Below, piece after piece: positions 38,512 to 49,940 of a DNA stretch of 64,000 nt. The notes beneath the pieces were generated by a model. That model was given only the letters and a program-made list of their open reading frames with translations, did no database searches and was not told the DNA's origin. Numbering within the stretch: the first letter of the stretch is position 1; every line of letters begins with the position of its first letter. Origin of the DNA: Sphaerotilus montanus (GTDB taxonomy: Bacteria; Pseudomonadota; Gammaproteobacteria; Burkholderiales; Burkholderiaceae_C). The DNA is taken from positions 4,712,001 to 4,776,000 of the forward strand of contig NZ_JACCFH010000001.1 in NCBI RefSeq assembly GCF_013410775.1, written 5' to 3'. Position numbers and translations under genes: made by a program.

Positions 38512-39999
38512 ATGACTGCCCTGCCAGCCGCCGCACTGTCGAACGGGTTCTTCGATCTACCTTCGGAGATGGTCGCTGGCGCCTCGCGCGAAGCGGTCGT
38601 GCTGGTGGACGCGCGGCAGTGCATCGTCGCCATCAATGCAGCGGCCGCGCGGATGTTCGGGCATGCCCAGCCGGACCTGCTGGGCCGGCCGCTGTCATGT
38701 CTGATTCCCGATGGCCTGCGCGACGTCCACGACCAGCATGTGCAGCACTTCACCGCGGCGCAGCAGGCCGAGCGCGCGCCCCTGCATGGGGAAGCCCTGC
38801 AAGGCCTGCGTGCCGACGGGCAGGTGTTTCCTGTCGAGGTGGTGGTGTCCCGGCTGGAACTGGTGCTCGACGGGCAACGCCACACCTGCTTCATGGCGAT
38901 GATGTGCGACCTCAGTACCCAGCACGGCCTGCGCAGCGAGGTGGCGATGCTGAGCGAGCGGGTGCGCACCGTGCTCGACCTGACGCCGGTGGCGATCTGG
39001 ATCGTCGATGACGAGCAGCTGGTGTATGCCAACCGCGCCGCCGTCCATCTGTTCGGCGTGTCGGACCGGGCACAGCTCATCGGCCGGTCGATCTACACCC
39101 TGCTGCATGCCAGCGGGCATGTACCGCTGCGGTCCCATCTGCAGTCAGCCAGACCGGTGAAGAGCGCCACGCCCGCGGTCGTCAGCGGCACCCTGCTGCG
39201 CCCCGACGGACAGACCCGCGAGGTCGACATCGCCACATCGGCCCTGCCGGACCACGGGCAGACCGTCCTGCAGATGGTCATCATCGACGTGACGGAAAGC
39301 CAGCGCCAGGCCCGGGAGCAGTCGCTGCACCGGGTCGAATTGCGCCGGCTGGCGGCCAGCGTGGTCGAGGCCCGCGAGGAAGAACGCCGCCGCATCGCCC
39401 GCGAACTGCACGACGAACTGGGCCAGCGCCTGACCGCCATGAAGATGGAGCTGTTCGGCCTGCGTGCCGAAACGCCCGGTCCCGGCGGGAACGGACGCAT
39501 CACCAGCATGCTGGAGATGGTGGACAGCACCGTGGCGGCACTGCGCCGGATTGCGGCCGACCTGCGTCCGCTGATGCTCGACGACCTGGGGCTGAACGCC
39601 GCGATCGAATGGCTGGCCCGCGACGCCGCCCGGCGCATGGACATGGAGGTGACGGTGCAGCTCGGCACCGAGGACCCGCCGCTGGGACCGGGTGCCGACA
39701 TCGCGCTGTACCGCATGGTGCAGGAGGCGCTGACCAACGTGGCCCGCCACGCCAATGCCACCGATGTCCGGATCGAGTTGCGCCAGAGCGCGGACGAACT
39801 GATCCTGACGGTGCGGGACAACGGCCATGGATTCCCCGACCGGTCGATGCGCCAGGACGGTCGCTACGGCCTGCTGGGCATGCGCGAGCGGGCGATCATG
39901 CTGGGCGGCCAGCTCGATCTGGACAACCCGCCGGGCGGTGGTGCCCGCATCACCGTGCACCTGCCGCTGAAACAGACCAGGAAGAAGGAAACCCCATGA
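38512..39999 (+). CDS. Soluble PAS-domain sensor histidine kinase (NarX-type HisKA_3)
   Basis: 495-residue cytoplasmic kinase with no membrane spans. It has two PAS-like domains at about residues 20-125 (SREAVVLVDARQCIVAINAA) and 148-260 (LDLTPVAIWIVDDEQLVYAN). The dimerisation/phosphotransfer segment EEERRRIARELHDELGQRL holds the phosphoacceptor H300. The HATPase domain has VQEALTNVARHANATDV, VRDNGHGFPD and GRYGLLGMRERA. PAS sensors of this layout often detect oxygen, redox state or small ligands; no haem-binding histidine can be assigned by eye. Its stop overlaps the response regulator start by 4 bp. It heads the stress/storage gene block. Confidence 0.93.
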   Translation: MTALPAAALSNGFFDLPSEMVAGASREAVVLVDARQCIVAINAAAARMFGHAQPDLLGRPLSCLIPDGLRDVHDQHVQHFTAAQQAERAPLHGEALQGLRADGQVFPVEVVVSRLELVLDGQRHTCFMAMMCDLSTQHGLRSEVAMLSERVRTVLDLTPVAIWIVDDEQLVYANRAAVHLFGVSDRAQLIGRSIYTLLHASGHVPLRSHLQSARPVKSATPAVVSGTLLRPDGQTREVDIATSALPDHGQTVLQMVIIDVTESQRQAREQSLHRVELRRLAASVVEAREEERRRIARELHDELGQRLTAMKMELFGLRAETPGPGGNGRITSMLEMVDSTVAALRRIAADLRPLMLDDLGLNAAIEWLARDAARRMDMEVTVQLGTEDPPLGPGADIALYRMVQEALTNVARHANATDVRIELRQSADELILTVRDNGHGFPDRSMRQDGRYGLLGMRERAIMLGGQLDLDNPPGGGARITVHLPLKQTRKKETP

Positions 40000-40715
40000 A
40001 TGCGACGCTGCATGAACCGGGGCTGCGTGTCCTGCTCGTGGACGACCACACCATCGTGCGGGAAGGCCTGAAGCGCATCCTCGAATCCACCCGCGAAGGC
40101 TGGAACATCACCGAGGAAAGCTCCGGATTCCGGGCCATGGACAACCTGCGGCACCAGGATTGCGGCCTGGTCATCGTCGATCTGTCGATGCCGGGCATGA
40201 GCGGACTGGAGCTGATCCGCCGCATCCGGGCCGAATCGACACGGCTGCCGATCCTGGTGCTGAGCATGCACGCCGAGGAGGAATATGCCCTGCGCGCCTT
40301 CAAGGCCGGCGCCAATGGCTATGTCACCAAGGACAGCGCGGCCGAAGAACTGGTGGTGGCCGCGCGCAAGGTGGCCAATGGTGGCACCTATGTGACCACC
40401 AGCCTGGCCGAGCGGGTGGTGCAGCAGCTCAACGGCAGCGTGGACGTGCCACGCCATGCCCGACTGTCGGAGCGCGAGATGGAGGTCCTGCGCCGCATCG
40501 TGGCCGGCGAGCGGGCCGGAGACATCGCCGAAGCGCTGCACCTGTCGATCAAGACCGTCAGCACGCACAAGACCCGCATCATGGACAAGCTGCAGGCCCC
40601 CAGCACCGCGGCGCTGGTGCGCTACGCCATCCAGCATGGGCTGCTGCTGCCGCCAGCCGATGCCGAAGAGCACGGCGACTGGAACCATGGGACCCAGCCC
40701 GGCGAGCTGACATGA
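39996..40715 (+). CDS. NarL/FixJ-family response regulator
   Basis: 239-residue LuxR-type DNA-binding response regulator, cognate of the kinase upstream by ATGA overlap. The receiver has VLLVDDHTIVREGL at the start, phosphorylated D62 in VIVDLSMPGMSG, and LSMHAEEEYALRAFKAGANG and YVTKDSAAEEL. The helix-turn-helix at about 160-220 includes LSEREMEVLRRIVAGE and HLSIKTVSTHKTRIMDKL. The overlap continues into the CheR-like gene by another 4 bp, so all three are one translational unit. Confidence 0.94.
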   Translation: MNATLHEPGLRVLLVDDHTIVREGLKRILESTREGWNITEESSGFRAMDNLRHQDCGLVIVDLSMPGMSGLELIRRIRAESTRLPILVLSMHAEEEYALRAFKAGANGYVTKDSAAEELVVAARKVANGGTYVTTSLAERVVQQLNGSVDVPRHARLSEREMEVLRRIVAGERAGDIAEALHLSIKTVSTHKTRIMDKLQAPSTAALVRYAIQHGLLLPPADAEEHGDWNHGTQPGELT

Positions 40716-41620
40716 CCGCCGGGCCACCGGCACCGGTGGCGGCGACACCGCTCGGCCTGAACACGGTCCTGGAATTGCTGCGCGCGCACGGCCAGCCGGA
40801 CTTCCGACTCTACAAGCAGCGCACGCTGCTGCGCCGCCTCGAACGGCGCATGCACATCCACCGCGTGCCCACGCTGCAGGACTATGCCCGCCTGCTGCGC
40901 CACAGCAGCCAGGAGGTGGCCTTGCTGTCGAAGGAGTTGCTGATCGGGGTGACCCTCTTCTTCCGCGACACCCCCGTCTGGCAGGCCCTGTGCGACACCG
41001 TGCTGCCCCGGTTGCTGGCCGACCATGCCGACGGAGACGTGCTGCGGGCCTGGGTCGCCGGCTGCTCCACCGGCGAGGAGGCCTACAGCCTGGCGATGGC
41101 CTTTCGCGAAGTGGTCGACGCGACGCCCGAACGCGCACGCTGCACGCTGCAGATCTTTGCCACCGACCTGAGCCAGGACGCCATCGACCGGGCGCGCGCG
41201 GGCACATTTCCGCCCTCGCTCGCCGACGAGCTGTCGGCTGTGCGGCTGGCACGCCATTTCGTGCAGCAGGACGGGGGTTACCGCATCGCGGCCTCCATCC
41301 GCGACACCATCGTGTTCGCGCGGCACGACCTGACCGCGGATCCCCCCTTGTCCCGGATGGATCTGATGAGCTGCCGCAACCTGCTGATGCACTTCTCGGA
41401 ACCGCTGCAGCAGCGGATCCTGCCGCTGTTCCACTACAGCCTGCGGCCCGGCGGCGTGCTGCTGCTGGGCAGTTCGGAGACCGTGCACGACCAGCACCAC
41501 CGGTTCGAGCCGCTGGACGCGGAGCAGCGGCTGTACCGGCGGTGCGCGGGCCCGCGCACCTACGTCATGCCGGCCTGTCCCCGCGAGCGGTCGACACCGT
41601 CCGCCACAGCGGCCACCTGA
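40712..41620 (+). CDS. CheR-type SAM-dependent methyltransferase
   Basis: 302-residue CheR-family protein. Classical CheR methylates glutamates of chemoreceptors. The N-terminal helical domain (DFRLYKQRTLLRRLERRMHI) is followed by the SAM domain with VAGCSTGEEAYSLAMAF, FATDLSQDAIDRARAG, MDLMSCRNLLMHFSE and LLLGSSETVHD. It ends without TPR repeats. The 4-bp overlap with the response regulator is odd: no chemoreceptor, CheA, CheW or CheB gene is nearby. The target may be another protein, or this may be a stand-alone regulator. The last 20 residues are Pro/Thr/Arg-rich and probably disordered. Confidence 0.88.
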   Translation: MTAGPPAPVAATPLGLNTVLELLRAHGQPDFRLYKQRTLLRRLERRMHIHRVPTLQDYARLLRHSSQEVALLSKELLIGVTLFFRDTPVWQALCDTVLPRLLADHADGDVLRAWVAGCSTGEEAYSLAMAFREVVDATPERARCTLQIFATDLSQDAIDRARAGTFPPSLADELSAVRLARHFVQQDGGYRIAASIRDTIVFARHDLTADPPLSRMDLMSCRNLLMHFSEPLQQRILPLFHYSLRPGGVLLLGSSETVHDQHHRFEPLDAEQRLYRRCAGPRTYVMPACPRERSTPSATAAT

Positions 41621-41644: not shown

Positions 41645-41677
41645 TCGGAAAATTCCGAATACCACCTGCCGTATTCG
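41645..41677. promoter_or_regulatory. Two adjacent inverted repeats upstream of the Crp/Fnr gene
   Basis: TCGGAA-AA-TTCCGA (41645-41658) and CGAATAC-N8-GTATTCG (41656-41677) overlap in the 185-bp gap between the CheR-like gene and the Crp/Fnr regulator. Neither has a T-run. They may be operators for the NarL-type regulator or the regulator itself, or stem-loops ending the upstream mRNA. No TTGA/TCAA site of the type found downstream is present in this gap. Confidence 0.35.
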
Positions 41678-41806: not shown

Positions 41807-42661
41807 ATGACTTGCCCCACCGCATCGCCCACGTCCGCCACTGGTTTCCCGTCACGCACAGGGACCCGGTGCACAGCCTCCGATGTGCTGCGCTGGTTCG
41901 GACGCCCCGACCAGGTCAGCAGCGCCACGGACCTGATCGAGTTCCAGATGCGGCAGGTCCATGCAGGGCGTTCACTGGTGGTCGAAGGGCAGCCGTTCGA
42001 GAAACTGCACCTCGTCAGCAGCGGCAGTTTCAAGTGCGTCCAGACCGACGTGGACGGCTACGAACAGGTGCTCGCATTCGCGATCCATGGCGACATCATC
42101 GGACTGGACGGTCTGGGCCAGGCGCAGCACCGGTCGGGCGCGGTGGCACTCGAGGACGCCTGCGTCGTCACGCTGCCCATCCGTGACCTGCTGGCGCTGG
42201 GCCGGGAGATTCCTGCGCTGGAATACCTCCTGCACCATGCCGCCGGGGCCGAAGTCTCCCGCTGCGGCGATACCCAGTACCTGATGGCGGCCCCCAGTTC
42301 CGAGGTGCGCGTCGCGCGCTTCCTGCTGCAGTTCGCCCGTCGCCAGTCGGCGCTGGGGCACTCCGGGCGCCGGCTTCGCATGTGCATGACGCGGCGCGAC
42401 ATCGCCAGCCACCTCGGGGTCGCCCACGAGACGGTCAGCCGGGTCCTGACCGCCCTGGACCACGATGGCTACATCAGCGTGTCGAACCGCGACATCGAAC
42501 TCGTCGATCTGTCCGCACTGTACGAACTGCAGCGGGTGACCCGTGGCCGGCAGTCGCGCGAGCGGCGCGCCGACACGGCCCGGCAGGCGGCGGCCCGGGC
42601 ACTGGTCAAGGCCGCCGACAGCGCGGCAGGCCGGTTGATCGAGTGTCCCGACGCCCGGTGA
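41807..42661 (+). CDS. Crp/Fnr-family transcriptional regulator
   Basis: 284-residue regulator, slightly longer than E. coli FNR. A cyclic-nucleotide-binding-like sensor domain covers about 40-160 (LVVEGQPFEKLHLVSSGSFK), then a dimer helix and a winged helix-turn-helix. The recognition helix reads HETVSRVL with E208, S211 and R212, equivalent to FNR E209, S212 and R213, which read TTGA half-sites. The N-terminal cysteine cluster of FNR is missing: only C3 and C22 precede the sensor fold. GGAGG is well placed. It is the closest regulator to the palindromic sites at 44553-49910 and is my candidate to bind them. The signal it senses is unknown. Confidence 0.92.
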   Translation: MTCPTASPTSATGFPSRTGTRCTASDVLRWFGRPDQVSSATDLIEFQMRQVHAGRSLVVEGQPFEKLHLVSSGSFKCVQTDVDGYEQVLAFAIHGDIIGLDGLGQAQHRSGAVALEDACVVTLPIRDLLALGREIPALEYLLHHAAGAEVSRCGDTQYLMAAPSSEVRVARFLLQFARRQSALGHSGRRLRMCMTRRDIASHLGVAHETVSRVLTALDHDGYISVSNRDIELVDLSALYELQRVTRGRQSRERRADTARQAAARALVKAADSAAGRLIECPDAR

Positions 42662-44058: not shown

Positions 44059-44487
44059 TCACTTCACCAGCAGCACCGGCACCTTCGCCAGATGCACCAC
44101 CCGCTGCGCGACCGAGCCGAGCAGCAGACCGCCCAGGACATTGCGCCCGTGCGTGCCCATCACGATCTGGTCGACCGCACGGTCGCCCGCCACACGGACG
44201 ATCTCGGTCGCAGGCAGCCCTTCGACCCCCAGCGTCACCACCTGCTGCAGGCCGCTGGCCCGCGCATGGGTCAGCGCCGTGGCCAGCAACTGGTCCTGGT
44301 GTCTGCGCGACGCCTGTTCGACCGCATCGAAATCGAAGATCGGCACCTCGCCGTAGTAGACCGGCAACTCCCGCACGTGGAGCAGCACGGCCTCGGTCTG
44401 CGGCACCAGACCCGCCAGCCGTGCGGCCACCTCGATGGCACGGCTGGCGTGGTCCGACCCATCGACGGCAATCAGCAACTTGAACAT
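44059..44487 (-). CDS. Universal stress protein UspA family
   Basis: 142-residue single-domain universal stress protein. MFKLLIAVDGSDHASRAIEV starts the fold. The nucleotide-binding loop G-x2-G-x9-G-S appears as MGTHGRNVLGGLLLGSVAQR, and VHLAKVPVLLVK ends it, so it is of the ATP-binding type. AAGGAG precedes the ATG at 44485-44487. It is transcribed away from the helix-hairpin-helix gene. The shared gap holds a palindromic Crp/Fnr-like site centred 72.5 bp from the start codon, with TAGATT as a fitting -10. Confidence 0.95.
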   Translation of the reverse strand: MFKLLIAVDGSDHASRAIEVAARLAGLVPQTEAVLLHVRELPVYYGEVPIFDFDAVEQASRRHQDQLLATALTHARASGLQQVVTLGVEGLPATEIVRVAGDRAVDQIVMGTHGRNVLGGLLLGSVAQRVVHLAKVPVLLVK

Positions 44488-44525: not shown

Positions 44526-44566
44526 AATCTAGTCCGGCACTGCAGCACCGGATTGCGCGCACTCAA
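44526..44566 (-). promoter_or_regulatory. Crp/Fnr-like site D and promoter, universal stress protein / HhH gene
   Basis: TTGCGCGCACTCAA at 44553-44566 has a full right half-site (GCACTCAA) and a degenerate left one. On the minus strand TAGATT (44531-44526) follows at a spacing that would put the dyad centre about 40 bp before the start of transcription, the class II activator position. The same dyad lies 68.5 bp before the plus-strand gene at 44628. Confidence 0.55.
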
Positions 44567-44627
44567 TGCGGTCCGTGCCATGGGTGCGCAATCTGCAGTG
44601 GCGTTTCACCGGAGCACGGAAGCCACG

Positions 44628-45359
44628 ATGTCCACGGCAGAAGTTCAAGGTCTCACCGCGGCGCCGCCACCGGGTCGCGCACCCGCGCAGCCCGACAACC
44701 CGTCCATCGCACAGGCGCTGCGGGAGATGGCGGTCCTGCTGGAAGCACAGGGCGACAATCCGTACCGCATCGCGGCCTACCGCCATGCCGCCGACACCGT
44801 GGAGCAGTTGCCGCGCCCGGTGCGTGATCTCCATGCACAGGAAGGCGAAGCGGGTCTGGTGGCACTACCGACCATCGGCACCCACATCGCGGCGGCCATT
44901 GCCGAACTGCTCGGCACGGGACGCTGGCAGCGACTGGATCGGCTGCGCGGCGAAGCCGATCCGGACGTGCAGCGCCGCAGCGGGGCCGCGGCAGCGCAGC
45001 ATCCCGGCCCGCCAGTGGCGCTGCTGCTGGACATCGACCGGATGTACCGCGCCCGCGCACAGGCCGGCACGCTGCCCCGGATCGCCCCCAGACGCTTCAA
45101 TCCCTCCGGCTCGGCCTGGCTGCCGGTGATGCATGTCGAGCGCCCTGGCTGGCATGTCACGGCGCTGTACTCCAACACGGCACGGGCGCATGAGCTCGGA
45201 CACGTGGAGGACTGGGTCGTGCTGTACGCCGAGGACGATGCCCACCATGAACACCACTGCACCGTGGTGACCGCCGGCCGAGGCAGCCTCGCGGGCCGAC
45301 GCGTGGTGCGCGGGCGCGAAACCGAATGCCGCGCGCTGTACGCGACGACAGGAAGCTGA
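44628..45359 (+). CDS. Helix-hairpin-helix domain protein (PolX N-terminal-like)
   Basis: 243-residue protein. Residues about 22-110 look like the 8-kDa/HhH domain of X-family DNA polymerases: SIAQALREMAVLLEAQGDNP, YRIAAYRHAADTVEQLPRPV and LPTIGTHIAAAIAELLGTG. No polymerase palm (GGxxR or DxD pattern) or PHP nuclease follows. Instead there is an unrelated domain (FNPSGSAWLPVMHVERPGWH, VTALYSNTARAHELGHVEDW) ending with RRVVRGRETECR. It probably binds DNA; the job of the second domain is unknown. It ends 5 bp before the cfa start, so they are co-transcribed. Confidence 0.82.
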   Translation: MSTAEVQGLTAAPPPGRAPAQPDNPSIAQALREMAVLLEAQGDNPYRIAAYRHAADTVEQLPRPVRDLHAQEGEAGLVALPTIGTHIAAAIAELLGTGRWQRLDRLRGEADPDVQRRSGAAAAQHPGPPVALLLDIDRMYRARAQAGTLPRIAPRRFNPSGSAWLPVMHVERPGWHVTALYSNTARAHELGHVEDWVVLYAEDDAHHEHHCTVVTAGRGSLAGRRVVRGRETECRALYATTGS

Positions 45360-45364
45360 CCGCG

Positions 45365-46543
45365 ATGCTCCTGACCTCCCTCTCCACCAAGGTACCGCCC
45401 GCCGATCCCGGTCGTGTCGCAGCGCAAGCGCTGCCCCGGACCCTGGCACGGCTGTTCGAGCGTGCCGGGATTCGGGTCAATGGTCCGGACCCCTGGGATC
45501 TGCAACTACACGACCCTGCCGCCTGGGGCCGCATGCTGCGCCACGGCGTGCTGGGGTTCGGCGAGTCGTACATGGACCAGCAATGGGATTGCGAGTGCCT
45601 GGAGGAGTTGATCTGCCGACTGCTGCTGGCGGACGGCGACCACGTGGTCACGCCGCAGTCGCTGCCCGGCTGGCTCGCCCGGCAACTGCGCCACGGGCTG
45701 ATGAACCTGCAGTCCGTGGCACGCGCATTCCATGTCGCGGAGCAGCACTACGACCTCGACAACGAGCTGTTCGCGGCGATGCTCGACGAGCAGATGGTCT
45801 ATTCCTGTGCCTACTGGGCCCATGCCACCGATCTGGACCAGGCGCAGCGCGACAAGCTCGATCTGATCTGCCGCAAGCTCGATCTGCAGGCTGGCGAGCA
45901 ACTGCTGGACGTGGGCTGCGGCTGGGGTGGCCTGGCCGCCCATGCGGCACGGCATTACGGCAGCCAGGTGCAGGGCGCCACCGTGTCCCGGGAGCAGGCC
46001 ACGCTGGCCCGCGCACGCTGCGAGGGCCTGCCGGTGCAGATCAACGTGACCGACTGGCGCGCACTGCACGGCCGCCACGACAAGCTGGCGTCGGTGGGCA
46101 TGTTCGAGCACGTGGGTCCGAAGAACCACCGTGCGTACTTCCAGCACATGCACGACCTGCTGAAACCCGGTGGCCTGTTCCTGCTGCACACGATCGGCAT
46201 CGACCGCACCAGCGGCGCCACCAATGCCTGGACCGACCACTACATCTTCCCGAACGGCAAGCTGCCCTCGGCGCTGGAGTTGACCCGGGCGATCGAGGGC
46301 CTGTTCACCATCGAGGACTGGCACAACTTCCCCGCCGACTACGAGCGCACCCTGCTGCACTGGTGGCAGCGCTTCGAGCAGCACTGGCCGGCCCTGCGCA
46401 GCCGCCACGACGAACGCTTCTTGCGGATGTGGAGGTTCTACCTGCTGTCCAGCGCCGGGTATTTCCGCTCCGGTCAGGGCCAGTTGTGGCAACTCGTGCT
46501 GTCGCCACCGGGCCGTTGCCGGGGCTACCGGTCGGTGCGTTGA
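45365..46543 (+). CDS. cfa: Cyclopropane-fatty-acyl-phospholipid synthase
   Basis: 392-residue SAM-dependent enzyme that adds a methylene bridge to unsaturated acyl chains in membrane lipids, hardening membranes in stationary phase or acid stress. Visible: the N-terminal lipid-associated region with GFGESYMDQQWDCE, HYDLDNELFAAMLDEQMVYS, SAM motif LLDVGCGWGGLAAHAA at about 178-193, TVSREQATLA, SVGMFEHVGPKNHRAYF and HTIGIDR. The stop codon lies inside a perfect 20-bp palindrome (46537-46556). Its start is 5 bp after the HhH gene. Confidence 0.95.
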   Translation: MLLTSLSTKVPPADPGRVAAQALPRTLARLFERAGIRVNGPDPWDLQLHDPAAWGRMLRHGVLGFGESYMDQQWDCECLEELICRLLLADGDHVVTPQSLPGWLARQLRHGLMNLQSVARAFHVAEQHYDLDNELFAAMLDEQMVYSCAYWAHATDLDQAQRDKLDLICRKLDLQAGEQLLDVGCGWGGLAAHAARHYGSQVQGATVSREQATLARARCEGLPVQINVTDWRALHGRHDKLASVGMFEHVGPKNHRAYFQHMHDLLKPGGLFLLHTIGIDRTSGATNAWTDHYIFPNGKLPSALELTRAIEGLFTIEDWHNFPADYERTLLHWWQRFEQHWPALRSRHDERFLRMWRFYLLSSAGYFRSGQGQLWQLVLSPPGRCRGYRSVR

Positions 46544-46556
46544 GTGCACTCAACGC
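46537..46556. promoter_or_regulatory. Crp/Fnr-like site A (perfect 20-bp palindrome) before the BON gene
   Basis: GCGTTGAGTGCACTCAACGC is a perfect palindrome whose core TTGAGTGCACTCAA (46540-46553) matches the dyad of FNR-type sites with G/C at the fifth base. It overlaps the cfa stop and is centred 92.5 bp before the BON gene start. No T-run follows, so it is not a terminator. Confidence 0.65.
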
Positions 46557-46638
46557 CGCGGTGGTGGCAGCGATCGACCATGCAGCGGCGGCCAGACCGC
46601 GGCAGGCCTCCTGCCATCCATACACGGAAAGGACCATC

Positions 46639-47298
46639 ATGAAGACCGATGAACAGCTGAAGACGGACGTCACGAGCGAAATGGAGTGGGATCCGGCCAT
46701 CAATGCCACGCATGTCGGCGTGGCGGTGAAGGGTGGCGTGGTGACGCTGACCGGCCATCTCGAGACCTTCGCGGAGAAGTACGCCATCGAGCGCGCCGTG
46801 GGCCGCGTGGAGGGCGTCAAGGCGGTGGCGATCGAACTCGACGTGAAGCTGGCCCCGGGCCACAAGCGCAGTGACTCCGAGATCGCGGAAGCCGCAGAGG
46901 CCGCGTTCAAGTGGCACGCCCTGATCCCTGGCGACCGCATCCAGGTGAGGGTCGAGAAAGGCAGGGTCACGCTCGCGGGCGAACTGGACTGGGAGTACCA
47001 GCGCACGGCGGCCGAGAAGGCGGTGCGGCCACTGACCGGGGTGGTCAGCGTCATCAACAACCTCCGGCTGAAGCCCTCGGTGGCGCCGGCCAACATCTCG
47101 AACCGCATCCGCGACGCGCTGGCGCGCCATGCCGAGCGCGAAGCCAAGAACATCGAGGTGATCGTGAACGGATCGACCGTCACGCTGCGTGGCCGGGTCG
47201 ATTCCCTGGCCGAGCGGTCGGCGGCGCAAGGCGCGGCCTGGGCCGCTCCCGGCATCAGCCTGGTCGTCAACGACCTGACGGTCGGATCGGGCACCTGA
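46639..47298 (+). CDS. BON domain-containing protein (three BON domains)
   Basis: 219-residue protein made of three BON repeats at about 3-70, 78-145 and 150-216. Each has the pattern of a helix then G-x-V-T-L-x-G (GGVVTLTGHLETFAEKYAIE, KGRVTLAGELDWEYQRTAAE, GSTVTLRGRVDSLAERSAA). BON domains bind phospholipid membranes and appear in periplasmic stress proteins such as OsmY. No signal peptide is visible here (MKTDEQLKTDVTSEMEWDP), so it may stay in the cytoplasm. GGAAAGGA precedes the ATG. A perfect Crp/Fnr-like dyad lies upstream. Confidence 0.92.
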   Translation: MKTDEQLKTDVTSEMEWDPAINATHVGVAVKGGVVTLTGHLETFAEKYAIERAVGRVEGVKAVAIELDVKLAPGHKRSDSEIAEAAEAAFKWHALIPGDRIQVRVEKGRVTLAGELDWEYQRTAAEKAVRPLTGVVSVINNLRLKPSVAPANISNRIRDALARHAEREAKNIEVIVNGSTVTLRGRVDSLAERSAAQGAAWAAPGISLVVNDLTVGSGT

Positions 47299-47316
47299 AC
47301 GGACCGCAGGGGTTCC

Positions 47317-47922
47317 TCAGGGCCCAGGAACCTCTGTCCCGGCCGGACCAGTCCGGGCAGAAGGCACCACCACGGCCAGCACGACCTGCAGATCACCGGG
47401 CAGACCGGTCTGCCCGGGCGCAGGGATGCCCCGCCCCCGCAAGCGCAGCTGGTGGCCGGTCTGCGCATGGGCGGGAATGCAGACCTCCACCTCGCCTCCG
47501 GGAGTGGGCATGGACACGGTGGCCCCGCGTGCGGCGTCCCAGGGCGTCACCGGCAGCGTGGCATGCAGGTCACGCCCCTCGACACGGAAAAGCGGGTGCG
47601 GCTCGAACTGCACCTCCAGGTACAGATCGCCCGGCCCCGCACCGACACATCCGGACGCCCCCCGCCCCCGCAGGCGGATCAGCTGGCCCGCCCGCAGCCC
47701 CCTGGGAATCGCGAGTTCCAGCGGATGCTCGACGAGGACCGGCCGCCCCAGGGCATCCGGCACGAAGCTCCGCAACTTCAGCGTCCGCCTGGCGCCATGA
47801 AAGGCATCGTCCAGCGGCACCAGGATCGTCGCGTGGAGGTCTGCCCCACGGCCATCGAACCCCGTCCCGACCAGCGGGTGCTGCCAGAGCTGGTCACGGG
47901 TACAGCAGTCCTTGGACTCCAT
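47317..47922 (-). CDS. DnaJ C-terminal-domain protein lacking a J domain
   Basis: 201-residue protein matching only the substrate-binding C-terminal part of DnaJ/CbpA co-chaperones: ADLHATILVPLDDAFHGARR, the LELAIPRGLRAGQLIRLRG pattern, DLYLEVQFEPHPLFRVEGRD, LHATLPVTPWDAARGATVS and VCIPAHAQTGHQLRLRGRG. There is no J domain or HPD motif; the start at 47920-47922 is followed within about 25 residues by the CTD. It would bind unfolded clients but could not stimulate DnaK by itself. It is divergent from the PHB synthase, and the shared gap holds Crp/Fnr-like site C. Confidence 0.86.
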   Translation of the reverse strand: MESKDCCTRDQLWQHPLVGTGFDGRGADLHATILVPLDDAFHGARRTLKLRSFVPDALGRPVLVEHPLELAIPRGLRAGQLIRLRGRGASGCVGAGPGDLYLEVQFEPHPLFRVEGRDLHATLPVTPWDAARGATVSMPTPGGEVEVCIPAHAQTGHQLRLRGRGIPAPGQTGLPGDLQVVLAVVVPSARTGPAGTEVPGP

Positions 47923-47986
47923 GGTGGTGATTCCATCGTGTCGGAGGTGAGAAAACCAGATCCTGAGCCGGGACGGCCGTCCGTGA

Positions 47987-48000
47987 TTGACCGCACTCAA
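47987..48000. promoter_or_regulatory. Crp/Fnr-like site C between the DnaJ-C and PHB synthase genes
   Basis: TTGACCGCACTCAA at 47987-48000 has intact outer TTGA and CTCAA blocks and the same GCACTCAA half as the other sites. The centre is 71.5 bp before the minus-strand DnaJ-C start and 41.5 bp before the plus-strand synthase start. Confidence 0.55.
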
Positions 48001-48034
48001 CGCCGCCCGCCGATCGGCACCACCCAATGTGCGG

Positions 48035-49900
48035 ATGAACCACACGCCACCCAGCCTCCTGCCTGCGCATCCGCCCGGAGCGGTCGTCCTGCCTGCCGCG
48101 TCGATCCGGGGCACGCACGAGCGCCGCGACAGCGCCTGGCTAGGCCGCTCCGACCCGCCCTCGCCCGCATTCGAGCGCTACCGGGACCTGGACCGGTTGC
48201 TGCTGTCCTCGATCGGCCACTGGACCGGTGGCCTGTCCGTGACGACCCGGGCCAACGCCCTGTTCGACTGGTGGGTGCACCTGGCGGCTTCACCGGCCAA
48301 GCAGCTGGAACTGCTGCAGTGGTCCGTGGACATCGCGCCGCACCTGCTCGAAGTCTGGCTCCGGCCGCAAGGCCGTGCCACCACGCCGGCCCATGCCCGG
48401 ATCGAGCCCAGGCCCCTGCCGCAGGACAAGCGCTTCTCGGCACGCGCCTGGCAGGACTGGCCCTTCAGCGCCTGGGCACAGAGTTTCCTCGCCGTGCAGC
48501 AGGCCTGGCACATGGCCACCGAGGGCGTGCCCGGCGTCAACCGCCACCACGAGGAGATGGTGGCCTTCGGCGCCCGGCAGTTGCTGGACATGCTCGCACC
48601 CTCGAACAGCATTGCCACCAACCCGGTGGTGCTGGAGCGCACGCTGGACGAGCGCGGCGCGAACCTGCTGCGCGGCGCCCGGCACGCCGCGGAGGATGTC
48701 TGGCGCGAGGCCCTCGAACTGCCCCCCGCAGGCGCCGAAGCGTTCAAGGTCGGCGTCAACGTGGCGGCCACGCCAGGGCAGGTGATCCTGCGCAACCGCC
48801 TGGCCGAGCTGATCCAGTACACACCCACCACGCCGCAGGTGCGGCCCGAACCGGTGCTGCTGGTGCCGGCCTGGATCATGAAGTACTACATCCTCGACCT
48901 CTCGGCGCACAACTCGCTGGTCCGGGCGCTGGTCGATCAGGGATTCACGGTGTTCGTGCTGTCGTGGAAAAACCCCGAGCCACGCGACCGCGACATCGGC
49001 ATGGCGGATTATTTCCACCTCGGCGTGGAAGCGGCGCTGGACGCGATCGAACGCGTGCAGCCCTTCGCGCCGGTGCACGCCGCCGGCTACTGCCTGGGTG
49101 GCACCCTGCTGGCCATGGCCGCCGCGGCACTCGCCCCGCGCAGGCCACAAGCCTTTGCCAGCCTCACGCTGCTGGCCGCCCAGACCGATTTCACCGACCC
49201 CGGCGAGCTGGGCCTGTTCATCGACGAAGGCCAGGTCGAACTGCTGGTGGACATGATGTGGCGCCACGGCGTGCTCCATGCGCGGCAGATGAAGGGCACG
49301 TTCCAGATGCTGCGCTCGCAGGATCTGGTCTGGTCCTACCGGCTGGTCAACTACCTGCTGGGCGAGCGCCAGGCGCCGAGTGACCTGATGGCCTGGAATG
49401 CCGACGGCACCCGACTGCCCTACCGCATGCACAAGGAGTACCTGCACACGCTGTTCCTTGACAACGCGCTGGCGCGGGGCGAGGCCTGCCTGGATGGCGA
49501 ACCGGTCAACCTGGCGCACATCCGCATGCCGGTCTTCAACGTCGGCACCCTGCAGGACCACGTCGCCCCCTGGCGGTCGGTGTACAAGCTGCACATGCTG
49601 ACGGATGCCGAGCAGACCTTCTGCCTCACGGCCGGCGGTCACAACGCCGGCATCATCAACCCGCCGCAGCAGGCCCGCACCAGCCACCGGCTGCGCCTCT
49701 GGCGCTCCGGTGACCCGCTGCTCACGCCCGACCAGTGGCTGGAGAAGACGCCGCTGACCGAGGGCTCCTGGTGGACACCGTGGTTCGACTGGCTGCACGC
49801 CCGCAGTGGCCCGTGGCGCCATCCGCCCACCATGGGCGCGCCGGAACAAGGGCTGCCCCCCCTGCAGGCGGCGCCGGGACGCCACGTGCTGGCGCCTTGA
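48035..49900 (+). CDS. phaC: PHA/PHB synthase family protein (class I PhaC-like)
   Basis: 621-residue polymerase of 3-hydroxyacyl-CoA into storage polyester. The PhaC N-terminal domain spans about 60-240 (DWPFSAWAQSFLAVQQAWH). The alpha/beta-hydrolase core has a lipase-like box GYCLGG with nucleophile C353, an Asp at D508 (LQDHVAPW) and a His at H536 (GGHNAGI). The end carries EGSWWTPWFDWLHARSG. I take the ATG at 48035; a TTG at 47987 lies inside the regulatory site and is unlikely. The catalytic triad is complete, so it should be active. The stop overlaps site B. No phaA or phaB is nearby. Confidence 0.92.
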   Translation: MNHTPPSLLPAHPPGAVVLPAASIRGTHERRDSAWLGRSDPPSPAFERYRDLDRLLLSSIGHWTGGLSVTTRANALFDWWVHLAASPAKQLELLQWSVDIAPHLLEVWLRPQGRATTPAHARIEPRPLPQDKRFSARAWQDWPFSAWAQSFLAVQQAWHMATEGVPGVNRHHEEMVAFGARQLLDMLAPSNSIATNPVVLERTLDERGANLLRGARHAAEDVWREALELPPAGAEAFKVGVNVAATPGQVILRNRLAELIQYTPTTPQVRPEPVLLVPAWIMKYYILDLSAHNSLVRALVDQGFTVFVLSWKNPEPRDRDIGMADYFHLGVEAALDAIERVQPFAPVHAAGYCLGGTLLAMAAAALAPRRPQAFASLTLLAAQTDFTDPGELGLFIDEGQVELLVDMMWRHGVLHARQMKGTFQMLRSQDLVWSYRLVNYLLGERQAPSDLMAWNADGTRLPYRMHKEYLHTLFLDNALARGEACLDGEPVNLAHIRMPVFNVGTLQDHVAPWRSVYKLHMLTDAEQTFCLTAGGHNAGIINPPQQARTSHRLRLWRSGDPLLTPDQWLEKTPLTEGSWWTPWFDWLHARSGPWRHPPTMGAPEQGLPPLQAAPGRHVLAP

Positions 49901-49940
49901 GTGCACTCAATCGGACGGGGCCAATTTCCACCAATATTGT
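49897..49940 (+). promoter_or_regulatory. Crp/Fnr-like site B and promoter of the phasin-like gene
   Basis: TTGAGTGCACTCAA at 49897-49910 is identical to the core of site A and overlaps the phaC stop. TATTGT at 49935-49940 is a fair -10 hexamer; the dyad centre would lie about 43 bp before the transcription start, near the class II activator position. The centre is 70.5 bp before the start codon. Confidence 0.6.

What the first reader, a model, noticed from the sequence alone, without database searches (positions are those of the whole stretch)
44553..49910. Four copies of a palindromic Crp/Fnr-like site in one stress/PHB gene block
TTGAGTGCACTCAA occurs twice exactly (46540-46553, where it extends to a perfect 20-bp palindrome, and 49897-49910); TTGACCGCACTCAA (47987-48000) and TTGCGCGCACTCAA (44553-44566) share the invariant GCACTCAA half. 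All four lie at gene boundaries within 5.4 kb. Centres are 68.5 to 72.5 bp from four start codons (HhH, usp, dnaJ-C, phasin-like), and TAGATT or TATTGT sits where a -10 should be for class II activation at usp and the phasin-like gene. A Crp/Fnr protein with the E-x-x-S-R helix is encoded at 41807. The fifth base G/C differs from the classical FNR TTGAT/ATCAA. This looks like a local regulon with its own operator type.
Basis: partly seen in the sequence, partly recalled or inferred. Interest (0 to 1): 0.82.

Follow-up and report, generated by a model that had tools for sequence, protein, structure and literature searches.

The report
FixK-like stress regulon with own operator
A set of palindromic DNA switches in front of stress and storage genes appears to belong to a second, FNR-like regulator that reads a slightly different DNA word from the classical oxygen regulator FNR in the same bacteria, so the two circuits may be kept apart by one or two letters.

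Summary
The four sites are real and non-random (4 places, 0.02 expected). They belong to a genome-wide, clade-wide regulon rather than a local one. In 80 named loci around relatives of the window's Crp/Fnr protein, TTG[A/C]G-N4-C[G/T]CAA occurs 110 times in 52 loci against 9.1 expected; 104 of 110 are intergenic, only the 4-bp spacer is enriched, and 26 of 133 promoter sides carry TANNNT 29-31 bp downstream, class II spacing. Twenty loci around Fe-S FNR genes of the same family show TTGA[C/T]-N4-[A/G]TCAA (47 sites), not the TTGMG form (2). The window protein lacks the Fe-S cysteines, lies in a separate clade with helix AHETVSR, and neighbours a PAS kinase with a FixL-like histidine and a LuxR-type response regulator. 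A conserved box, TCGGA-N4-TCCGA, begins 162 bp upstream of its start. Best reading: a FixLJ-FixK-like cascade driving stress, chaperone and storage genes through its own operator type. Binding, oxygen sensing and activation are inferred. New variant of a known kind.

The parts
38569..39999 (+). PAS-PAS-HisKA_3-HATPase sensor histidine kinase; PAS1 is FixL-like and keeps the aligned FixL histidine (haem ligand by recall)
   Evidence: Pfam (scanned from 38512); PDB FixL 1d06 E 3.9e-10 and 4.9e-11 for PAS1 alone with H aligned; start from gene (an upstream ATG at 38512 is possible)
39996..40715 (+). LuxR/NarL-type response regulator (FixJ-like position)
   Evidence: Response_reg + GerE; FixJ model 110.9 bits against cut-off 255
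41645..41658 (.). TCGGAAAATTCCGA box upstream of the crp/fnr gene; proposed operator of the response regulator
   Evidence: TCGGA-N4-TCC[G/T]A or T[A/C]GGA-N4-TCCGA 41 in 80 loci (1.5 expected), 37 of the 41 within 400 bp upstream of the crp/fnr start, in 36 of 71 loci; 3 exact TCGGAN4TCCGA places in own genome, 1 in the reversed control
41807..42661 (+). Crp/Fnr-family regulator, helix AHETVSR, no Fe-S cysteine motif
44553..44566 (+). operator TTGCGCGCACTCAA, divergent usp / HHH
44526..44531 (-). TAGATT, -10-like hexamer of usp, 29 bp from site centre
44059..44487 (-). universal stress protein gene
   Evidence: Pfam Usp 4e-29
44628..45359 (+). HHH_8 protein
   Evidence: Pfam (scanned from 44517); ATG read
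45326..46543 (+). cyclopropane-fatty-acid-synthase-like gene, stop codon inside the next operator
   Evidence: CMAS 2.9e-83
46540..46553 (.). operator TTGAGTGCACTCAA (20-bp palindrome with flanks), upstream of BON gene
46639..47298 (+). triple BON-domain protein
   Evidence: scanned from 46642
47317..47922 (-). DnaJ C-terminal-domain protein
47987..48000 (+). operator TTGACCGCACTCAA, divergent dnaJ-C / phaC
48035..49900 (+). PHA synthase (class I-like), stop codon inside the next operator
   Evidence: TIGR01838 493.3 bits, below its 622.65 cut-off
49897..49910 (.). operator TTGAGTGCACTCAA upstream of the phasin-like gene
49935..49940 (+). TATTGT, -10-like hexamer, 32 bp from site centre

Best explanation
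The four palindromes are operators of the Crp/Fnr protein encoded at 41807-42661, a FixK-like (cysteine-cluster-free) FNR relative. It binds TTG[A/C]G-N4-C[G/T]CAA as a dimer, often centred near -41.5, and activates promoters of stress, chaperone, storage and carbon-metabolism genes. Proposed cascade: the neighbouring PAS kinase senses low oxygen or redox (haem PAS) and phosphorylates the LuxR-type regulator; that binds the TCGGA-N4-TCCGA box upstream of the crp/fnr gene; the Crp/Fnr protein then switches on usp, hsp20-like, BON, DnaJ-C, phaC/phasin-like, ppsA, lon-like and other genes. The G at the fifth base separates this regulon from the Fe-S FNR regulon (TTGA[T/C]) of the same cell. Shown by computation: the sites, their association with this protein clade, the 4-bp spacer, the -10 spacing, the paralogue-specific difference, the conserved upstream box. 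Inferred: physical binding, activation, oxygen as signal, response-regulator control.
For: 110 TTGMGN4CKCAA sites in 52 of 80 loci around the protein's relatives vs 9.1 expected, sd 2.7; 104 of 110 intergenic and 100 of 110 within 250 bp of a called start; spacer 4 gives 110, spacers 5-14 give 1-9; TANNNT at +29..+31 in 26 of 133 promoter sides, 0-2 at each other offset from 8 to 109; FNR-type control loci: TTGMG 2 sites (3.1 expected) but TTGAYN4RTCAA 47 sites in 20 of 20 loci (0.8 expected), and all 29 FNR control loci fetched carry the cysteine motif and a [K/T]LETVSR helix; 17 AHET proteins on one side of a branch against 16 FNR and 3 others, 99/94 support; 121 genes next to sites: Usp 12, Crp/Fnr 11, DLH-type hydrolase 11, Hsp20 10, DUF883 6, CBS 4, Cpn60 3, BON 3, Host_attach 3; HK within 3 kb in 38 and RR within 3 kb in 40 of 71 loci; TCGGA box; FixL-like His. 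The FixK2 regulon of Bradyrhizobium has similar kinds of genes: Hsp20, Usp, host attachment protein, GroEL, DnaJ, PpsA (PMC9104804, table passages).
Against: 28 of 80 loci have no TTGMG site (some are short contigs), and the 80 loci include near relatives, so counts are not independent events. The same 80 loci also hold 24 TTGAY sites in 18 loci, about 1.5 expected, so the difference is a preference or FNR shares some promoters. FNR loci from seven genomes that have both proteins gave 11 TTGAY but also 3 TTGMG sites (0.2 expected); two of the three are the lon-like pair, 6 kb from the own fnr gene. The window protein's own subclade gives only 14 sites in 10 of 19 loci (1.3 expected, one shuffle reached 6), several of them one conserved site upstream of the gene itself. 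Usp is only mildly enriched: 12 of 121 next to sites, 7 of 115 controls. The window has no TTG-N8-CAA site upstream of the crp/fnr gene. No -10 at +28..+31 for HHH, BON, phaC, dnaJ-C, phasin-like. The kinase is HisKA_3 type and HK, RR and Crp/Fnr are below the FixL, FixJ and FixK cut-offs. The TCGGA box shows no -10 at a fixed offset. The tree tool warned of long branches meeting. No experimental data.
Confidence: 0.74

Rival explanations
1. The sites are read by the Fe-S FNR (C1:147885) as weak or variant FNR boxes; the 41807 protein has another job.
For: FNR has the same E-x-x-S-R helix type; the lon-like pair of sites lies 6 kb from fnr; same-genome FNR loci gave 3 TTGMG sites vs 0.2 expected; TTGAY sites also occur above chance in AHET loci.
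Against: In the 20 FNR control loci TTGMG is at chance (2 vs 3.1 expected) while TTGAY is 47 in 20 of 20 loci; TTGMG density is 84/Mb in the 80 AHET loci and 5/Mb in the 20 FNR loci.
Confidence: 0.12
2. Both regulators act on overlapping sites (shared or heterodimeric control, as described for Fnr1/Fnr3 group III promoters in Herbaspirillum seropedicae), with TTGAG merely favouring one.
For: Mixed half-sites are common: of 256 TTGMN6KCAA sites, 110 are G/C at positions 5/10, 32 T/C and 25 G/A; Herbaspirillum precedent (PMC5934665, abstract and passages).
Against: Strong segregation of the symmetric forms by locus type; the window protein and own FNR are distant (32% identity), which makes heterodimers unlikely (inference).
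Confidence: 0.1
3. The palindromes are not operators but repeats, terminators or coding coincidences.
For: Two sites overlap stop codons; perfect palindromes can be structural.
Against: A 14-bp palindrome without a loop is no hairpin terminator (inference); 104 of 110 related sites intergenic, 100 of 110 near starts; fixed 4-bp spacer and fixed -10 distance.
Confidence: 0.02

Closest known systems
FixLJ-FixK2 cascade of Bradyrhizobium diazoefficiens (PMC9104804, passages and table rows seen)
   Same: Crp/Fnr regulator; 14-bp TTG(A/C)-N6-(T/G)CAA box; two-component system FixLJ upstream; targets include Hsp20, Usp, host attachment protein, GroEL, DnaJ, PpsA, many about 60-90 bp from the start codon.
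   Different: Fifth base G instead of mostly T/C in the rows seen; helix AHETVSR; kinase is HisKA_3 type; putative response-regulator box TCGGA-N4-TCCGA; the proteins fall below the FixK, FixL and FixJ model cut-offs. FixK2's own sequence was not aligned residue by residue here.
FNR (Fe-S), including the own-genome paralogue at C1:147885
   Same: Family, E-x-x-S-R helix, 14-bp palindrome; class II use of FNR is established knowledge.
   Different: No CxxC..C cysteine motif; G not T/C at base 5; different clade.
NnrR of alphaproteobacteria (PMC1274295, abstract and passages)
   Same: Motif ctTTGcgnnnncgCAAag: C at base 4 and G at base 5, as in the TTGCG form here.
   Different: Denitrification targets; relation of the proteins not tested here.
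Burkholderia FixLJ-FixK/BCAM0049 (Anr2) and the lxa low-oxygen locus (PMC5234846, PMC6127331, PMC9104464: passages only; the original lxa paper is not held)
   Same: Low-oxygen stress response with Usp genes; FixLJ induces fixK.
   Different: The homologue found beside a usp gene in one B. cenocepacia record has helix MTLETVSR and groups with FNR, so it is not an orthologue of the window protein. That this homologue is BCAM0049/anr2 is inferred from its place beside usp.

Membership tests
FNR (Fe-S oxygen sensor) | N-terminal CxxC-x5-C cysteine motif | tested here: not met
   own FNR has it, window protein does not
FNR (Fe-S oxygen sensor) | E-x-x-S-R recognition helix | tested here: met
   AHETVSR
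FNR (Fe-S oxygen sensor) | TTGAT-N4-ATCAA operator | tested here: not met
   TTGAT form 4, TTGAG form 32 in 80 loci
FixK/FixK2-like | Crp/Fnr fold without Fe-S cysteines | tested here: met
   (fold by family models, not by structure)
FixK/FixK2-like | TTG(A/C)-N6-(T/G)CAA box | tested here: met
   all four window sites fit; 256 sites vs 68.0 expected in 80 loci
FixK/FixK2-like | Passes a curated FixK model | tested here: not met
   NF050806 75.9 bits against cut-off 300
FixK/FixK2-like | Transcription under FixLJ-type two-component control | tested here: inconclusive
   linked HK/RR and conserved box upstream; control itself not testable
FixK/FixK2-like | Micro-oxic stress/chaperone regulon | tested here: inconclusive
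   target families resemble those of PMC9104804 table; expression not testable
FixL | Haem PAS with proximal His | tested here: inconclusive
   His aligned with FixL; haem binding not testable
FixL | FixL kinase core / curated model | tested here: not met
   HisKA_3; NF041777 68.7 bits against 850
CRP (TGTGA) | TGTGA-N6-TCACA operator | tested here: not met
   0 sites in 80 loci
NnrR | NO response and denitrification targets | not tested
   no NnrR sequence compared

The most novel reading that the evidence does not exclude
A two-tier oxygen/stress cascade that runs parallel to FNR and is kept separate from it by operator type: a haem-PAS HisKA_3 kinase and a LuxR-type regulator acting at a TCGGA-N4-TCCGA box turn on an AHETVSR Crp/Fnr protein that reads TTG[A/C]G-N4-C[G/T]CAA, while Fe-S FNR in the same cell reads TTGA[T/C]-N4-[A/G]TCAA. 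The determinant of base 5 would lie outside the two specificity positions (180/181) that PMC1274295 correlates with bases 3 and 6.
Probability: 0.55. Interest if true: 0.68.

Novelty: new variant of a known kind. Interest (0 to 1): 0.6.

Why it matters
Paralogous Crp/Fnr proteins with the same E-x-x-S-R helix coexist in many bacteria, and how they avoid each other's promoters is a standing question. Here comparative data give matched sets of sites for two paralogue types within one family, in part within single genomes, so the base-5 specificity determinant and regulon insulation become directly testable. It also gives a group of Burkholderiales, many known only from metagenomes, a predicted stress regulon and a predicted response-regulator box.

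Tried and rejected
Whole-genome counts of TTGAGNNNNCTCAA over 200 family genomes were a weak statistic: 154 of 200 have a match, but many also have reversed-control matches; I moved to neighbourhoods. TTGNGNGCACTCAA over the same 200 genomes: 62 of 200 have a match, few with more than one place, so the GCACTCAA half is not family-wide. A third helix class (VTLETVSR, without the cysteine motif) was too rare to test: 2 of 200 genomes at E<=1e-45. Order-wide search (200 genomes): 151 match at E<=1e-30; four genomes (G114, G000, G228, G301) score far above the rest; the rest score like the own FNR (210 bits) and were not checked one by one. The inverted repeat GAATAC-N8-GTATTC upstream of the window's crp/fnr gene is in none of the 80 loci, so not followed. 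The B. cenocepacia record had 3 Usp places and no Usp in the 50-kb stretch read for lxa, so lxa operators could not be compared. Terminator and repeat readings rejected (spacer and -10 results). Structure prediction and fold search were not used. Exact-string paper searches: one search gave one unrelated cancer paper; one search gave 4 papers, of which only PMC1274295 (NnrR motif) bears on this; one search gave none; topic searches were seen as listings. The library holds open-licence papers only, so this is not proof of absence in print.
Full report
Observation. In the whole 5.07-Mb genome it has 9 places and 0 in the reversed control: the four of the finding, three within 1 kb beside an hsp20-like gene, one upstream of a lon-like gene, and one inside a called gene. 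The window genome is in the same genus as G058, whose contig has the same length (177,004) as a Sphaerotilus hippei contig carrying a relative of the protein, so the organism is taken to be a Sphaerotilus relative (inference).

Genes. Pfam assigns Crp/Fnr (41807), a PAS-HisKA_3 kinase, a LuxR-type response regulator, alcohol dehydrogenase, Usp, HHH_8, cyclopropane synthase, three BON domains and a DnaJ C-domain; the 48035 gene is PHA-synthase-like; the phasin-like gene has no match in Pfam or NCBIfam. The window Crp/Fnr lacks the CxxC-x5-C motif that the own FNR at C1:147885 has. Names not from a family hit but read from the translation: lon-like, CBS-like, adh-like, host-attachment-like, cytochrome c and DUF2934-like genes of the own genome.

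Clade-wide operator. I aligned 17 relatives and fetched named loci with up to 10 kb on each side (137 found, the best 80 kept). In their 1.305 Mb, TTGMG-N4-CKCAA occurs 110 times in 52 of 80 loci; 20 dinucleotide shuffles give 9.1 (sd 2.7, maximum 14). TTGAG-N4-CTCAA: 32 vs 0.9; TTGCG-N4-CGCAA: 12 vs 4.8; TTGAC-N4-GTCAA: 6 vs 0.5; TTGAT-N4-ATCAA: 4 vs 0.2; TGTGA-N6-TCACA: 0 vs 0.8; reversed controls at chance. With my own simple gene caller 104 of 110 are intergenic and 100 of 110 lie within 250 bp of a start. Among spacers 4 to 14 only 4 stands out. Given the pattern, base 4 is A in 59% and C in 41%, base 6 is C in 60%; in nine own-genome sites the inner bases are mostly TG..CA. Some loci are close relatives, so counts are not independent.

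Promoter geometry. On 133 promoter sides (site centre 30-250 bp from a start) TANNNT starts at +29 (18), +30 (7) or +31 (1); every other offset from 8 to 109 has 0-2. If the site centre is -41.5, +30 is -12, so this is class II spacing. In the own genome nine promoter sides have TANNNT at +29 or +30, among them usp, hsp20-like (262 bp from its start), host-attachment-like, acetate-CoA ligase and cytochrome c genes. Of the window's other promoter sides none has it at +28..+31.

Paralogue control. Twenty loci around FNR-type genes from the same family hold 2 TTGMG sites (3.1 expected) and 47 TTGAY-N4-RTCAA sites in 20 of 20 loci (0.8 expected); all 29 FNR loci fetched carry the cysteine motif and a [K/T]LETVSR helix. 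In seven genomes that have both proteins, FNR loci give 11 TTGAY (0.1 expected) and 3 TTGMG sites (0.2 expected); two of the three are the lon-like pair of the own genome. Two further same-genus FNR loci give 2 TTGAY and 0 TTGMG. Against a clean split, the 80 AHET loci also hold 24 TTGAY sites in 18 loci, about 1.5 expected. So the split is a strong preference, not absolute. In the window protein's own subclade the result is weaker (14 sites in 10 of 19 loci, 1.3 expected, one shuffle reached 6). The tree puts the 17 AHET proteins on one side of a branch (99/94) and 16 FNR plus 3 others on the other (midpoint root, with a long-branch warning for the other side).

Targets. Of 121 genes next to sites: Usp 12, Crp/Fnr itself 11, DLH-type hydrolase 11, Hsp20 10, DUF883 6, CBS 4, Cpn60 3, BON 3, Host_attach 3. 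Of 115 control genes from the same loci: response regulators and HisKA_3 kinases 9 each, Usp 7, Crp-type HTH 7, DLH 3, Hsp20 not among the 25 of 155 families listed. Usp enrichment is therefore mild, Hsp20 stronger. Own genome: 28 TTGMG places vs 14 in the reversed control, 21 of 28 intergenic, including ppsA and acetate-CoA ligase (over the NCBIfam cut-off), hsp20-like, lon-like, CBS-like and adh-like genes. Conservation gene by gene is modest: sites upstream of 9 of 29 Usp, 3 of 9 BON, 2 of 16 Cfa, 1 of 5 phasin, 0 of 3 PhaC and 0 of 2 DnaJ-C homologues; no HHH homologue found.

Upstream control. HK and RR homologues lie within 3 kb of the crp/fnr gene in 38 and 40 of 71 loci where its start was called. 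Reading the upstream regions showed a second palindrome, TCGGA-N4-TCCGA: exact form 21 (1.1 expected), relaxed form 41 (1.5 expected), 37 of the 41 within 400 bp upstream of the crp/fnr start in 36 of 71 loci; spacers 3, 5 and 6 give 0, 0 and 1. One control palindrome, TCGGT-N4-ACCGA, was also above its shuffles (10 vs 0.3) but never within 400 bp upstream of the gene. The window has one exact box, at 41645, and the genome three, against one in the reversed control. The box is present with an RR homologue in the locus in 29 loci, without in 7; 24 loci have the RR but no box and 11 neither. I propose it as the response regulator's operator; there is no fixed -10 behind it, so this step is the least secure. 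The kinase PAS1 hits FixL in the PDB and keeps the histidine of the FixL HD motif (that this is the haem ligand is recalled).

What is known. FixK2: box TTGA/C-N6-T/GCAA and a regulon with Hsp20, Usp, host attachment protein, GroEL, DnaJ, PpsA (PMC9104804, passages). NnrR: ctTTGcgnnnncgCAAag, and specificity positions 180/181 correlated with bases 3 and 6 (PMC1274295, abstract and passages). Herbaspirillum Fnr1/Fnr3 have distinct but overlapping motifs (PMC5934665, abstract and passages). Burkholderia FixLJ induces fixK at low oxygen (PMC5234846, passages). So the circuit works like FixLJ-FixK; the base-5 G, the AHETVSR clade and the TCGGA box are what differ. The exact motif strings I searched were not found for this system, in an open-licence library only.

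Verdict. Observation confirmed; interpretation partly supported and widened. New variant of a known kind.

Noticed in passing
window 41645-41658: TCGGA-N4-TCCGA box upstream of the Crp/Fnr gene, a relaxed form of it upstream of the gene in 36 of 71 loci; further TCGGA-like half-sites often follow downstream (by eye, sequences).
   Followed up: partly
window 41656-41677: Perfect inverted repeat CGAATAC-N8-GTATTCG overlapping the end of that box, followed by TAGCAT; its GAATAC-N8-GTATTC core is single in the window and absent from the 80 relatives' loci.
   Followed up: partly
window 41807-42661: The window's Crp/Fnr lies in a different subclade from the AHET proteins of the two same-genus genomes (L084, L091; 38% identity in the alignment, 43% in the local match), which suggests replacement or horizontal gain (tree).
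   Followed up: no
L229 3682-3720 (G000:C1:141682 and 141707): Two operator-like sites 25 bp apart between a lon-like gene and a divergent hydrolase-like gene (both named from the translation), 6 kb from the own fnr gene.
   Followed up: no
L117, L118, L120, L121, L122 upstream of crp/fnr: Near-identical site TTGAGAAC[G/T]CGCAA 186-306 bp upstream of the crp/fnr start in close relatives, suggesting autoregulation or control of the divergent gene; not present in the window.
   Followed up: partly
window 40736-41620: CheR-type methyltransferase-like gene between the response regulator and Crp/Fnr (recognised from the translation, not searched); homologues in 11 of 80 loci.
   Followed up: no
window 48035-49900: PHA synthase scores 493.3 bits for class I, below that model's cut-off of 622.65, so possibly a divergent PHA synthase.
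   Followed up: no
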